Source of the DNA: Pseudactinotalea sp. HY158
Lineage (GTDB): Bacteria; Actinomycetota; Actinomycetes; Actinomycetales; Beutenbergiaceae
Reading direction: 5' to 3'
NCBI RefSeq assembly: GCF_009660225.1
Contig: NZ_CP045920.1
Span: 1,736,001 to 1,800,000 of the forward strand
Length of the DNA stretch: 64,000 nucleotides
Shown: one piece after another, positions 49,456-63,799 of the stretch
How the letters are laid out: each line of letters begins with the position of its first letter
Numbering within the stretch: position 1 is the first letter of the stretch
The notes under the pieces: model-generated
The model's input: the letters and a program-made list of their open reading frames with translations, nothing else
What the model was told of the DNA's origin: nothing
Database searches by the model: none
Position numbers and translations under genes: made by a program

Positions 49456-50199
49456 TCAGTGTCGCGTGAGTACCTGCATGGCCAGGCTCACAACGTGATC
49501 GATGACCTCCCGACGGGAGGTGGCGGGGAAGAAGTGGCCGCCGGTGAAGGTCCTGAGCCCGAGAAAATCGGTCGTGTAGTCCTCCCACGGGGTGACGTCG
49601 GAAGGCGGCGCCACCTGGTCGTCGCGTCCAGCCAGCGCAGCCAGTGGGACAGGCGACGCCCACGGTGCGGTGCGGTGATAGCGGTCGCACAGCTGTAGAT
49701 CCGCTCGTAGCGGCGGGAACAGTAGTTCCCTCAGCTCCAGGTCGCCCACGAGCTCCTGCGCGGTGCCACCCCAGTCGACAAGGGACTCGGCAAGGTCGTC
49801 GTCGGTGTAGTCGTTCTCGCGGTGACGGGAGCGGATATGCGGAGCTGGTGACCCCGAGACGATCACCGCCCGCGGCTGGTGGGGCGATCCAGCCAGCTCC
49901 GCTGCAACCTCGAAGCCGATCAGGGCACCCATGCTGTGCCCGAAGACGAACAGCGGCCGCTCATCGAGCGCGGTGAGCGCAGAGACCACTTCCGTGACCA
50001 GCCGCTGTGGGTCGCGGTTCAATGGCTCGTCTGCGCGGTCTCTCCGTCCGGCAGGGGTGACCGCCCACAGCTCCAGTGCACCGCCCAGGTCGCGCACCCA
50101 GGGTGCGTAGGCGTCAGCGCTGGCCCCCGCGTGCGGCACACAGAGCAGCCGAGCGCCACGGCGCTCCGGCCCAAACCGGTGCAGGCATCCTGTGCTCAC
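49456..50199 (-). CDS. Type II (editing) thioesterase
   Basis: A 247-residue alpha/beta hydrolase with nucleophile motif FVFGHSMGALIGFE (Ser near 90), an Asp in LAGRDDQVAPP and the His in FTGGHFFPA. Type II thioesterases remove stalled or wrong acyl groups from carrier proteins of PKS and NRPS lines. The GTG overlaps the exporter stop. It is the last gene of the six-gene biosynthetic operon. Confidence 0.88.
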   Translation of the reverse strand: MSTGCLHRFGPERRGARLLCVPHAGASADAYAPWVRDLGGALELWAVTPAGRRDRADEPLNRDPQRLVTEVVSALTALDERPLFVFGHSMGALIGFEVAAELAGSPHQPRAVIVSGSPAPHIRSRHRENDYTDDDLAESLVDWGGTAQELVGDLELRELLFPPLRADLQLCDRYHRTAPWASPVPLAALAGRDDQVAPPSDVTPWEDYTTDFLGLRTFTGGHFFPATSRREVIDHVVSLAMQVLTRH

Positions 50200-61100: not shown

Positions 61101-63799
61101 TCCATCCAATAGCGGTCGCGGTGCCACGGGTACAGCGGCAGCCGCAGTGAACCGGGGGTGGTGTAGAACGCCCGCCAGTCTGGACCGAGGCCGTTCACGA
61201 ACAGTCGTGCGCACGCCACGGCCATGGCTTGGGCATCCGGGTCCTTGCGGCGGAGCGAGGACACGGTCACTCCGTCCACGCCGGCCTCTGTCAGGCAGGA
61301 CTGCACCGAATACCCGAGCACCGGGTTGGGTCCGAGTTCGAGGTAAGCGCGGTGGCCGTCACGAATGGCGCACCGCGCGGCATGCGCGAACTGGACCGGC
61401 TGGCGCACGTTGCGCCACCAGTAATCTGCGTCGTGGACGGGGCCCGTGACGGACTCTCCAGTAACGGTCGAGTACATCGGGCAGGTCGGCGCCGACGGTA
61501 CGACGTCGGCCAGCACCTCGCGTAGCTCCTCCTCCAGCGGGTCCATGCCGGGCCCGTGGAACGGCACGTCACCGGGAACCATGCGTGCGAACACGTCGCG
61601 CTTCTCCAGATCCTCCTGCACCGACACCAGGATGTCCACGTCGCCGACCAGCGCGATCGACTCCGGGCCGTTGATCGCGGCCAAGTGCAGCCTCCCGTCG
61701 ACCACGGGCGCCAGGCCCTGCGCCTCCTGCGGTGAGATCGACGCTGCGAGCAGTCTGCCCTGCCCGGAGGTGCTCTGCTGCAGGCGGGCCCGGTGGAACA
61801 CCACGGTCACGGCGTCGTCGAAGGAGAGCGCGCCCGTGACGTAGGCGGCTGCGACCTCACCGGCGCTGTGGCCGATCACCGCGTCCATGGGGACTCCGAG
61901 TTCGCGCCACACGGCGGCCAGGCCGAGCTGCACCGTGAAGTTCGCGCACTGGGAGATCTGGGTCCGGCCCATCAGCGAGGAGTCCTCATCCCGTCGCAGC
62001 TCGTCGACGATCGACCAGCCCGCCAACGGAGTCAACGCGGCGTCCACCCGTTCCACCTGAGCTGCGAAGATGGGGTTGCGCTCGAGCAGGTCGCGGGCCA
62101 TGCCCCACCACTGCGGGCCCATCCCTGTGAACAGCCAGACGAGCGTCGACCCGGCAGCGCCACCGGTCACCAGGTCGGCGTGCGGGGAACCTTGGGACAG
62201 AGCATCCAGGGCCGCCCGGGTCGACTCGAGATCTCCCACGAGCACCGCCGCCCGAGACTGCGGGTGCAGTGCCCGGTGGTGGACACGGGCGGCGGCGATC
62301 TGGTCTGCCGCGGCGCCACTCGTGAGCATCCGCGCATCCTGGGTAGCCAGGGCGGACAGGGCACCGTTGCTCCGGGCAGCCAGTGGCAGGATCGGTGTGA
62401 TGCCACGACTGGCCGGTGACCGCTCAGCGTCCCCGTCAACCTGTGCTGGGTCGGGGGCCTCCTGCAGGATCAAGTGCGCGTTGGTCCCACCGAACCCGAA
62501 CGAGTTGACTGCTGCGAACCCGACACCGTCCGACACCGGCAACGCACACGACTTGGTAGGGATCCGCAGCCTCAGGTCCTCCAGGTCGATCTTCGGGTTG
62601 AGCTCGGTGAGGTGAAGGTGGGCCGGGACTTCCCTGTGGCGCAGCACCAGTGCTGCCTTGATCAGGCCTGCCACACCGGCTGCTGCCTCGGTGTGTCCGA
62701 TATTGGACTTGACGGACGCGATCATGCAGGCGCTGCGCGGATCACGCCCCCGGCCGTAGACGTCCCCGATCGCGTTCGCCTCAATCGGGTCTCCCACCGG
62801 GGTGCCGGTGCCGTGCGCCTCCACGTAGCCCACCGCGTCCCGGTCGATGCCGGAGACCGCCAGCGCGTGTTTCATGGCCTTCTTCTGACTCGTGCCGTTG
62901 GGGACGGTGATGCCGTTGGTGCGCCCGTCCTGGTTCACGGCCGACCCACGGATGATCGCGTAGATGCGGCGGCCGGATCCGATTGCGACCGAGAGAGGTT
63001 CGAGTAGGACGACACCACAGCCCTCGGCTCGCACGTAGCCGTCCGCCTCCGCGTGGAACGGACGCGACCGGCTGGTCGGCGACAGGAAGCCTCCCTGGGA
63101 CGCCGCGATCGTGAAGTTAGGCGCCAACATCAGGTTCACCCCGCCGGCGATGGCCATGGTGCTCTCGCCCGTGAGTAGCGACTGACAGGCCAGGTGTACG
63201 GCGACCAGCGACGAGGAGCACGCGGTGTCGACGGTCATGCTGGGCCCGGTCAGGTCGAACGCGTGGGAGATGCGGTTGGAGAACATCGTCATCACGACAC
63301 CGGTCGCGGTGTGGGCACGCAACAGCCCGCGCGACCCAGTGGCACCGGAGAACTGCAGCTGGCTGTAGTCCAGCGTGAAACCGCCGACGAACACGCCGGT
63401 CCGCGAACCGGCGAGCGTGTCCACGGGAGTTCCTGAGTCCTCGATGGCCTCGTAGGCCACCTCCATCAGGAAGCGATGTTGGGGATCAACGAAATCCGCC
63501 TCGCGGGGGCTGATCCCGAAGAACTGGGCGTCCCACTCGGACACGTTCTGTTCGAGGAAGCCCCCCCGCTGAACCCGCGAGTGCCCTGGCCCGAGATCCG
63601 GGTCATAGAACTTTCGCGCCGACCAGCGATCCGCAGGAATGTCGACGATCCCATCCCTGCCACGGCGCAATAGATCCCAGTAGGAGTCAGTGTCGTGGAC
63701 ACCTCCGGGAAAGCGACATCCGATCCCGACGATGGCGACCGCTTCCGCCCACTCCGAGGGCATCACAGACCGTGCACTTGCCTCTGAATTCGATAACAT
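58193..63799 (-). CDS. Type I polyketide synthase, single module KS-AT-DH-KR-ACP
   Basis: A 1868-residue PKS. The KS has DTACSSS (Cys about 191), EAHGTGT and NIGHTEAAAG. The AT has FTGMGPQWWGM, GHSAGEVAAAY (about 645) and VPFH at the extender-specificity position, which favours malonyl-CoA. The DH has HMVHGANLFP (about 941) and LDGCFQ (about 1106). The KR has TGGLGALG (about 1472) and NYAAANAY (about 1630). The ACP carries LGLDSM (about 1786). There is no ER and no loading module, so iterative use is likely and the chain would be partly unsaturated. GGAGGA five bases upstream selects the ATG at 63799. The stop overlaps the NRPS ATG. Confidence 0.9.
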   Translation of the reverse strand: MLSNSEASARSVMPSEWAEAVAIVGIGCRFPGGVHDTDSYWDLLRRGRDGIVDIPADRWSARKFYDPDLGPGHSRVQRGGFLEQNVSEWDAQFFGISPREADFVDPQHRFLMEVAYEAIEDSGTPVDTLAGSRTGVFVGGFTLDYSQLQFSGATGSRGLLRAHTATGVVMTMFSNRISHAFDLTGPSMTVDTACSSSLVAVHLACQSLLTGESTMAIAGGVNLMLAPNFTIAASQGGFLSPTSRSRPFHAEADGYVRAEGCGVVLLEPLSVAIGSGRRIYAIIRGSAVNQDGRTNGITVPNGTSQKKAMKHALAVSGIDRDAVGYVEAHGTGTPVGDPIEANAIGDVYGRGRDPRSACMIASVKSNIGHTEAAAGVAGLIKAALVLRHREVPAHLHLTELNPKIDLEDLRLRIPTKSCALPVSDGVGFAAVNSFGFGGTNAHLILQEAPDPAQVDGDAERSPASRGITPILPLAARSNGALSALATQDARMLTSGAAADQIAAARVHHRALHPQSRAAVLVGDLESTRAALDALSQGSPHADLVTGGAAGSTLVWLFTGMGPQWWGMARDLLERNPIFAAQVERVDAALTPLAGWSIVDELRRDEDSSLMGRTQISQCANFTVQLGLAAVWRELGVPMDAVIGHSAGEVAAAYVTGALSFDDAVTVVFHRARLQQSTSGQGRLLAASISPQEAQGLAPVVDGRLHLAAINGPESIALVGDVDILVSVQEDLEKRDVFARMVPGDVPFHGPGMDPLEEELREVLADVVPSAPTCPMYSTVTGESVTGPVHDADYWWRNVRQPVQFAHAARCAIRDGHRAYLELGPNPVLGYSVQSCLTEAGVDGVTVSSLRRKDPDAQAMAVACARLFVNGLGPDWRAFYTTPGSLRLPLYPWHRDRYWMESEATRADRTGDMPHPLLGRRQDTATAAWSRELDGSRPAYLSDHMVHGANLFPGAGYVDMALRAGQEEAPAARLSIFDVTFHNPVVMQGTLSGELETVMDRTTSMVQINGRATSDRPWTQHMTGFLAPARGAARHFDIAAARDRCPSLQKRAECYSTFAGGGFDYGPQFQMIEALWLGDGEAVARFDSQLLGGEARAERGESILDPILLDGCFQLLLPLAQAQSVDLTQAIPVGVGRIEMLPALDDHVPTATVWTRARISEVGPDLVAGDVVVTDDAGNVLLQVDRFQVRLVDPDAQVPRQGHHWLYEVDWEAAESQGSEHLAGALSATSSAPVEDEGTVTTDPQPEPGPLRRARHWLMLNPGTGAGERLAHMLTARGDRVLMATTDSRGKALAPGSWVADLNHRSDLEAVLAWAAAELVGETPGVIDLRALGAPEASLDRSPSLAHQYAGGLLDLVQAMDARDLAWPLTLVTAGAQPVTGPVHPAGVGQAAVWGMGRVLHQESVELAPRLVDLDPDDLQNCLPALVDELHGDTGEDQLGLRSEGRFVARLQPSTEPDTWLPARLAPFGTYLITGGLGALGVVCARWLARRGARRVVLTSRKGLPPRDQWDRVTDTRQREQINTVLGIEQEGTTVEVVALDTTDAEQVREFVTQRRRAALPPLHGVLHAAGVLHDTVMVRMSPDDLHTVLNPKVEGTLALHHGLEGEPLDFFALFSSVSSVVVTSGQANYAAANAYMDAFASRLRAAGVAAVSINWGPWDVGMIAEMNLQAFYGRRGIDLIPERVGVQLLSVILGKSTAQQVIVSADWPTLIASYPVVPRMIEHLGQAGADDQDNGEGVDWKSAIAGAEPDQRLPVVTDGVANVLGAVLRIGPDELNRDVPLNQLGLDSMIAVEVRIRIERALGYSPKVVTLLQGVTVSDVAALIDSELAPAGDETPDGISEMVQNVDPDVLEALLSEIEQIGPNGTAS

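What the first reader, a model, noticed from the sequence alone, without database searches (positions are those of the whole stretch)
49456..63799. Compact PKS-NRPS operon with reductive release and no assigned product
Seen: six genes all joined by 4-base overlaps, with one PKS module (KS-AT-DH-KR-ACP) feeding one NRPS module (C-A-T-R), plus two reductases, an exporter and a type II thioesterase. Known: the KS-AT-DH-KR-ACP plus C-A-T layout is that of iterative polyene-amide lines such as the polycyclic tetramate macrolactams, but those are fused in one protein and end in a thioesterase. Inferred: an iterative, split variant ending in a reductase would give an unsaturated acyl amino aldehyde or alcohol, or a cyclised imine, unlike tetramates.
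Basis: partly seen in the sequence, partly recalled or inferred. Interest (0 to 1): 0.85.

Follow-up and report, generated by a model that had tools for sequence, protein, structure and literature searches.

The report
Glycine-loading PKS-NRPS operon, reductive release
A compact bacterial gene cluster very probably builds an unsaturated fatty chain by reusing one enzyme module, joins it to glycine and cuts it free as an aldehyde or alcohol; it is a relative of the machinery for tetramate antibiotics with a different ending, and its product is not known.

Summary
Six minus-strand genes (49456-63799), overlapping by 4 bases each, encode PKS (KS-AT-DH-KR-ACP), NRPS (C-A-T-R), MDR reductase, ApbA-like protein, MFS exporter and thioesterase. 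A PPTase gene (48664-49440, +) stops 15 bases away and may belong.

No PKS module follows beyond 64,000; this is the only type I PKS ketosynthase found in the one-contig genome. In a sampled tree its KS lies beside that of a polycyclic tetramate macrolactam (PTM) cluster, so iteration is likely.

New here: the A domain reads DILQLGMIWK, a glycine code, and the R domain keeps Thr-Tyr-Lys. Expected product: N-acyl glycinal or N-acyl ethanolamide, or, if the chain keeps its last keto group, a 3-acyl-pyrrolin-2-one as in fungal reductive lines.

The NRPS is full-length in 10 of 16 Tsukamurella genomes and one actinobacterial MAG, but in none of 23 other genomes of the window's family. It is a new variant of a known kind. 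Product, chain length and MIBiG similarity were not testable.

The parts
58193..63799 (-). PKS, KS-AT-DH-KR-ACP, 1868 aa from the ATG at 63799 (ORF open from 63886)
62609..63745 (-). KS domain (Cys223, His358, His398 in the numbering of the ORF from 63886)
61190..62140 (-). AT domain, GHSAGE and VPFH motifs (malonyl-type by recalled motif)
60215..61060 (-). DH domain, His972 and Asp1138
58823..59398 (-). KR domain, Ser1645, Tyr1658, Asn1662
58328..58522 (-). ACP domain, Ser1817
53694..58196 (-). NRPS, C-A-T-R, 1500 aa
56772..58070 (-). C domain with HHxxxDG
55248..56696 (-). A domain, specificity code DILQLGMIWK (glycine)
54951..55148 (-). T (carrier) domain, Ser1045
53745..54818 (-). R (thioester reductase) domain, Thr1257, Tyr1288, Lys1292; nearest solved structure by sequence is the MxaA R domain, 4u7w
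52717..53697 (-). MDR oxidoreductase, candidate trans-enoylreductase (role inferred)
51773..52720 (-). ApbA/KPR-like protein; the catalytic Lys position of ketopantoate reductase (recalled motif) aligns to His
50196..51776 (-). DHA2-type MFS exporter
49456..50199 (-). stand-alone thioesterase, GHSMGA and GGHFF motifs (type II by recalled motif)
48664..49440 (+). 4'-phosphopantetheinyl transferase, convergent; may belong to the cluster
   Evidence: not found beside the relatives

Best explanation
It is a small iterative PKS-NRPS pathway. A PPTase, probably the neighbouring one, activates the carrier domains. The one-module PKS (no loading domain, no partner module) extends a starter repeatedly, by motif with malonyl units; KR and DH leave double bonds, and the MDR protein may act in trans to saturate some of them. 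The ACP hands the chain to the NRPS, which joins it to glycine. The R domain frees the product by NAD(P)H reduction as N-acyl glycinal or, after a second reduction, N-acyl ethanolamide. The ApbA-like protein may do that second reduction or another one. The thioesterase clears stalled chains and the MFS protein exports the product. Shown from sequence: gene order, domains, catalytic residues, glycine code, absence of another PKS ketosynthase, KS kinship. Inferred: iteration, chain length and unsaturation, roles of MDR, ApbA, thioesterase and exporter, aldehyde versus alcohol.
For: Domains and catalytic residues. Glycine code DILQLGMIWK in the window and in 9 of 9 Tsukamurella stretches read (L033, L128-L135), DILQLGMVWK in L035; PMC12283262 (passages) reports DILQLGMIWK as shared by four Gly-activating domains that carry a monooxygenase. 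Of four PF00109 matches in the one-contig genome (99.3% complete) only this one is a type I PKS, and there is one NRPS match at E<=1e-100, so no other module is at hand to feed it. The KS lies in a 17-row group (99/99) with a PTM cluster's KS and in a 26-row group (98/95). Of 14 non-family loci of the 26-row group that I scanned at 14 kb or more, 13 show a single KS; of 12 scanned loci outside it, 5 do. PTM synthetases use one module iteratively (PMC8399814, passages). R domain closest in the PDB to MxaA (myxalamid), E 1.6e-80, YxxxK shared. MDR is kept next to the pair in L035 at 60% identity, above PKS and NRPS (51%).
Against: No chemistry. A single extension of a fatty-acyl starter would use the same genes. 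The stretches of nine Tsukamurella copies (14-20 kb) have no match to MDR, ApbA, MFS, TE or PPTase at E<=1e-8, and L035 (22.8 kb) has none to TE or PPTase, so these genes are not essential to the core and their roles are guesses. ApbA has His at the ketopantoate-reductase lysine position, so even its being a reductase is not sure. The MDR scores below the cut-off of its best NCBIfam model, a PIG3-type quinone reductase (236 against 296.8 bits), and nothing here shows that it serves a PKS. Single-KS loci also occur outside the 26-row KS group (5 of 12 scanned: L034, L040, L047, L083, L210).
Confidence: 0.6

Rival explanations
1. Bacterial counterpart of the fungal reductive PKS-NRPS lines: the last cycle leaves the beta-keto group, the R domain makes an N-(3-oxoacyl)glycinal, and this closes by Knoevenagel condensation to a 3-acyl-1,5-dihydropyrrol-2-one, which MDR or ApbA may reduce.
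For: PTM synthetases, whose KS is near kin, form their tetramate by a Dieckmann-type step (PMC8399814), for which their chains must keep a beta-keto group (chemical inference, not stated in the passages). Fungal R-type hybrids are one-module and iterative, often use a trans-ER, and a separate alpha/beta-hydrolase is proposed for the Knoevenagel step (PMC7421883; trans-ER and R release also in PMC5667575); the operon has an MDR and a thioesterase, itself of alpha/beta-hydrolase fold. L034 (Chloroflexi) has KS-AT-ACP-C-A(Gly)-T-R without KR or DH hits, beside a TE, so its chain should stay beta-keto.
Against: Nothing shows that the last KR step is skipped. The thioesterase looks like an ordinary type II editing enzyme. 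No methyltransferase and no ER domain of any kind in the PKS, unlike the fungal layout.
Confidence: 0.22
2. One-shot lipid tailoring: the PKS extends a fatty-acyl starter from primary metabolism once, and the NRPS and R domain add a reduced glycine, giving a short lipid signal.
For: No loading domain and no fixed partner are also what this needs; L035 carries an AMP-ligase next to the exporter, which could feed an acyl starter.
Against: KS kinship with mostly single-module PKSs, a PTM-type one among them. The window operon has no acyl-AMP ligase besides the A domain.
Confidence: 0.13
3. Decayed or silent insertion beside a tRNA gene with no working product.
For: A repeat element, 79% alike to two other places in the genome over about 410 bases, lies between the PKS and tRNA-Pro; the full-length NRPS is absent from the other 23 genomes searched in the family.
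Against: The six reading frames are open and the catalytic residues checked are intact.
Confidence: 0.05

Closest known systems
Polycyclic tetramate macrolactam (PTM) synthetases (HSAF, ikarugamycin IkaA, SkoA)
   Same: One iterative KS-AT-DH-KR-ACP module feeding one NRPS module (PMC8399814); KS group shared; AT motif VPxH shared with L180.
   Different: PTM: one fused protein of about 3,100 aa, ornithine, TE, FAD oxidoreductases, alcohol dehydrogenase and sterol desaturase (L180). Here: two proteins, glycine, R domain, no FAD oxidoreductase or desaturase found.
Fungal reductive (R-type) PKS-NRPS lines with trans-ER (cytochalasin, ACE1/RAP1, pseurotin)
   Same: Iterative one-module PKS, NRPS ending in R, separate enoyl reductase in many (passages); an MDR gene here.
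   Different: Bacterial, split, no methyltransferase or ER domain found in the PKS, glycine; no evidence of the ring-closing step. The PDB match of the NRPS to PsoA is distant (E 6e-99, 24th row).
Myxalamid MxaA terminal NRPS module
   Same: Polyketide chain joined to an amino acid and released by an R domain (recalled); closest solved R domain.
   Different: Myxalamid has a modular PKS and ends in alaninol (recalled); here one PKS module and glycine.
Linear gramicidin LgrD/LgrE (recalled, no paper found)
   Same: Gly-terminated line released by an R domain to the aldehyde, then reduced to ethanolamine by a separate reductase.
   Different: Pure peptide line; LgrE was not compared with the ApbA or MDR protein.
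Tsukamurella PKS-NRPS-ABC transporter cluster (no product found in the listings)
   Same: PKS and NRPS with the same domains, glycine code and catalytic residues, about 45-50% identity.
   Different: ABC exporter in the two copies whose neighbours were annotated; no match to MDR, ApbA, MFS, TE or PPTase in nine stretches.

Membership tests
PTM synthetase | single KS-AT-DH-KR-ACP module followed by C-A-T | tested here: met
PTM synthetase | PKS and NRPS fused in one protein | tested here: not met
   two ORFs with a 4-base overlap
PTM synthetase | terminal TE domain (tetramate formation) | tested here: not met
   R domain instead
PTM synthetase | ornithine-specific A domain | tested here: not met
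   DILQLGMIWK here; DVGEVGSIDK, close to a recalled ornithine code, in the PTM-type cluster L180
PTM synthetase | neighbouring FAD oxidoreductases and sterol desaturase | tested here: not met
   none among the genes examined; present in L180
PTM synthetase | KS of the PTM group | tested here: inconclusive
   17-row group 99/99 with L151/L180, but that tree has one PTM row and a midpoint root
Reductive-release NRPS module (R-terminated) | thioester reductase domain with Thr-Tyr-Lys | tested here: met
   TIGR01746 321 bits, cut-off 213.35; residues
Reductive-release NRPS module (R-terminated) | aldehyde or alcohol product | not testable with these tools
   needs an enzyme assay
Glycine-activating NRPS module | glycine specificity code | tested here: met
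   the ten positions were set by recalled motif anchors, not by a structure alignment
Fungal-type iterative PKS-NRPS with trans-ER | separate enoyl reductase working with the PKS | tested here: inconclusive
   MDR gene in the operon, function not shown
Fungal-type iterative PKS-NRPS with trans-ER | pyrrolinone formed from an aldehyde | not testable with these tools
   needs the product
Ketopantoate reductase (PanE) | catalytic Lys and Asn motif (recalled) | tested here: not met
   Lys aligned to His in the 5hws alignment; below the apbA_panE cut-off (73.8 against 141.35 bits)
Known cluster with assigned product | MIBiG similarity | not tested
   MIBiG is not held; the listings named no such product

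The most novel reading that the evidence does not exclude
A bacterial iterative PKS-NRPS family, kin to the tetramate macrolactam synthetases, that replaced Dieckmann release by reduction and makes glycine-derived 3-acyl-pyrrolin-2-ones, so that bacteria and fungi reached the same pair of alternative endings (tetramate or pyrrolinone) from iterative PKS-NRPS lines.
Probability: 0.22. Interest if true: 0.72.

Novelty: new variant of a known kind. Interest (0 to 1): 0.5.

Why it matters
The cluster is small enough (seven genes, 15 kb) to express whole. It would show what an iterative PKS of the tetramate kind makes when its ending is a reductase and its amino acid is glycine, and whether such bacterial lines give open-chain aldehydes and ethanolamides or pyrrolinones as in fungi. 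The same core is common in Tsukamurella, so a structure would assign a product to a cluster of that genus too.

Tried and rejected
The first read-off of the A-domain code was wrong by one residue at positions 299 and 301 (DILQACMIWK); re-registered on the GGEA/GSA block it is DILQLGMIWK. The search used codes of both registers.

More PKS modules beyond 64,000: rejected. A cyclised imine: rejected on chemistry, since the amine is acylated. A repeat of the tRNA-Pro end inside the window: none with up to 3 mismatches (only the window was searched). Pfam families in the small ORFs between PKS and tRNA: none in the three given, so 'mobile-element remnant' for the repeat there is my reading.

The AlphaFold model of the ApbA-like protein, made without an alignment, had mean pLDDT 37.9 and was not used. 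ApbA homologues on plasmids: none at E<=1e-20. Tsukamurella genome G419 has no ApbA match at E<=1e-5.

Paper searches for a known product or this layout gave none; only listings were seen, for the best 15 of 29 and 12 of 149. Searches for the linear gramicidin precedent listed no paper on it that I read, so that comparison is recalled. Of five papers I saw passages: PMC12283262, PMC8399814, PMC11724479, PMC5667575, PMC7421883.

KS tree: rows with fewer than 380 aligned query residues and identical rows were dropped, and one row, L112 (a second copy of the L035 region), was dropped before the tree. It has one PTM row and no KS of known product. I left the odds as they were, since they rest mainly on the genome-wide KS search and the PTM kinship.
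Full report
Place and context. The window is bases 1736001-1800000 of a one-contig genome of 3.65 Mb, 99.3% complete. The operon runs on the minus strand and its first gene, the PKS, starts at 63799, just inside the window. I read on past 64,000: between the PKS and a tRNA-Pro(ggg) at L003 15867-15943 lies a repeat that is 79% alike to two other places of the genome over about 410 bases; I take it for a mobile-element remnant, though Pfam finds nothing in the three small ORFs given. 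Then follows an ABC transporter gene. G+C is lower in the cluster than in the 14 kb before it, but equally low at 10-28 kb of the window. So an acquired block beside a tRNA gene is plausible, not shown; no repeat of the tRNA end was found in the window.

Anatomy. Pfam gives KS, AT, DH, KR, ACP in the first protein and C, A, T, thioester reductase in the second, followed by a medium-chain dehydrogenase/reductase, an ApbA-like protein, an MFS exporter and a thioesterase. All five junctions are 4-base overlaps. A PPTase gene stops 15 bases from the thioesterase on the other strand. In the other 23 genomes searched in the family, 8 have a match to it at E<=1e-5, at 29-38% identity over part of the protein, so it has no close counterpart there. 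Against its belonging, no match to it was found in the L035 or Tsukamurella stretches.

Does the PKS work alone? PF00109 finds four places in the genome: this KS (294 bits), two in reading frames of 481 and 477 aa that look like primary fatty-acid KAS enzymes, and one below the cut-off. No other PKS module is at hand to feed or extend it. In a KS tree of 78 rows (midpoint root) the window KS, L035 and nine Tsukamurella rows form one side of a branch (100/98); next come three single-module PKSs of other actinobacteria (92/85, not a starred branch), and then, at 99/99, a 17-row group with the KS of L180. L180 has the PTM layout: KS-AT-DH-KR-ACP-C-A-T-TE in 3126 aa, a fatty-acid-hydroxylase-type gene and FAD oxidoreductase frames, an A code DVGEVGSIDK close to a recalled ornithine code, as described for SkoA in PMC8399814 (passages). 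Of 14 non-family loci of the wider 26-row group scanned at 14-25 kb, 13 show one KS and L039 three. Of 12 scanned loci outside it, 7 show two or more and 5 one (L034, L040, L047, L083, L210). Modules beyond the scanned stretches would be missed.

Which amino acid? The ten specificity positions, set by recalled motif anchors, read DILQLGMIWK in the window and in 9 of 9 Tsukamurella stretches, DILQLGMVWK in L035. PMC12283262 reports that exact ten-letter code as shared by four glycine-activating domains that carry a monooxygenase (passages). The same code is common (75 of 290 A-domain hits over the loci then held, 37 more with V for I), but those loci were partly chosen by a scan with this A domain's own motif, so the count is no independent test.

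Which release? The R domain scores 321 bits against TIGR01746 and is closest in the PDB to the MxaA R domain of myxalamid. Thr1257, Tyr1288 and Lys1292 are present here and in the ten family copies checked (L035 and nine Tsukamurella), as are the KS, AT, DH, KR, ACP, C and T residues. The redox-active residues argue against a Dieckmann-type ending.

Distribution. Own family: 1 of 24 genomes (the window's own) has the full-length NRPS; three others match at 34-35% over C-A-T only. Phylum sample: 16 of 396 match at E<=1e-150, none but the own above 39%, and the other near-full-length matches at 33-35%; two candidates a genome were scored. Family of G419: 15 of 251 at E<=1e-200, of which ten are those Tsukamurella genomes and five lie at 34-37%. 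Among 72,556 plasmid records one, T. tyrosinosolvens NCTC13231 plasmid 10, carries it at 48%; the next best listed is under 33%. The pair stands before an ABC exporter in the two Tsukamurella copies whose neighbours were annotated. L035 has ApbA, PKS, NRPS, MDR, MFS and an AMP-ligase.

Accessory genes. MDR and MFS are 60% identical between window and L035, PKS and NRPS 51%, ApbA 46%. ApbA aligns weakly with ketopantoate reductases, with His at the lysine position. Their absence from the Tsukamurella stretches means that they tailor rather than build, if they take part.

Product. Core prediction: N-acyl glycinal or N-acyl ethanolamide with an unsaturated chain. If the chain keeps its last keto group, as tetramate chemistry requires in PTMs, the aldehyde could close to a 3-acyl-pyrrolin-2-one, the route proposed for fungal R-type hybrids (PMC7421883, passages); a fungal hybrid expressed with its trans-ER gave an open-chain amide that its authors ascribe to reductive release (PMC5667575, passages). 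Both outcomes are open here.

Verdict. The finding is real and well read. It is a new variant of a known kind: a PTM-related, probably iterative PKS-NRPS with glycine and reductive release. The product is unknown and MIBiG could not be consulted.

Noticed in passing
L183 (G367:C71) and L185 (G358:C128): Single bacterial reading frames of about 3,900 aa with KS-AT-DH-(about 2 kb unassigned)-ER-KR-ACP-C-A-T, the layout of fungal highly reducing PKS-NRPS hybrids; A codes DPWQLGVIEK and DPWQFGLIDK.
   Followed up: partly
L034 4253-15204 (Chloroflexi MAG): One 3403-aa reading frame: AMP-ligase-like domain, KS-AT-ACP, C-A(Gly)-T-R without KR or DH hits, followed by a TE; should release a beta-ketoacyl glycinal.
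   Followed up: partly
L200 8582-14004 (T. tyrosinosolvens NCTC13231 plasmid 10): The annotated PKS gene starts at 10198 although the KS match lies at 8582-9862, so the gene table lacks the 5' part or the gene is broken there; a site-specific integrase gene is upstream.
   Followed up: no
L126 (G430): A Tsukamurella-genus copy whose NRPS matches in three pieces in different frames, with the glycine code kept: broken, or an assembly fault.
   Followed up: no
L179, L181, L182: Stand-alone KS-AT-DH-KR-ACP PKSs without an NRPS hit nearby, nearest kin of the window PKS outside the family; L179 has an FAD-enzyme-type gene before it and an ABC exporter pair after it.
   Followed up: partly
L003 about 14945-15358 (just beyond the window's end): Repeat of about 410 bases between the PKS and tRNA-Pro, 79% alike to two other places of the genome; no Pfam family in the ORFs given.
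   Followed up: partly
window 44866-45753 (+): ECF-type sigma factor with a C-terminal SnoaL-like match (below Pfam's cut-off), beside an NAD(P)-binding NmrA-like gene at 44038-44814.
   Followed up: no
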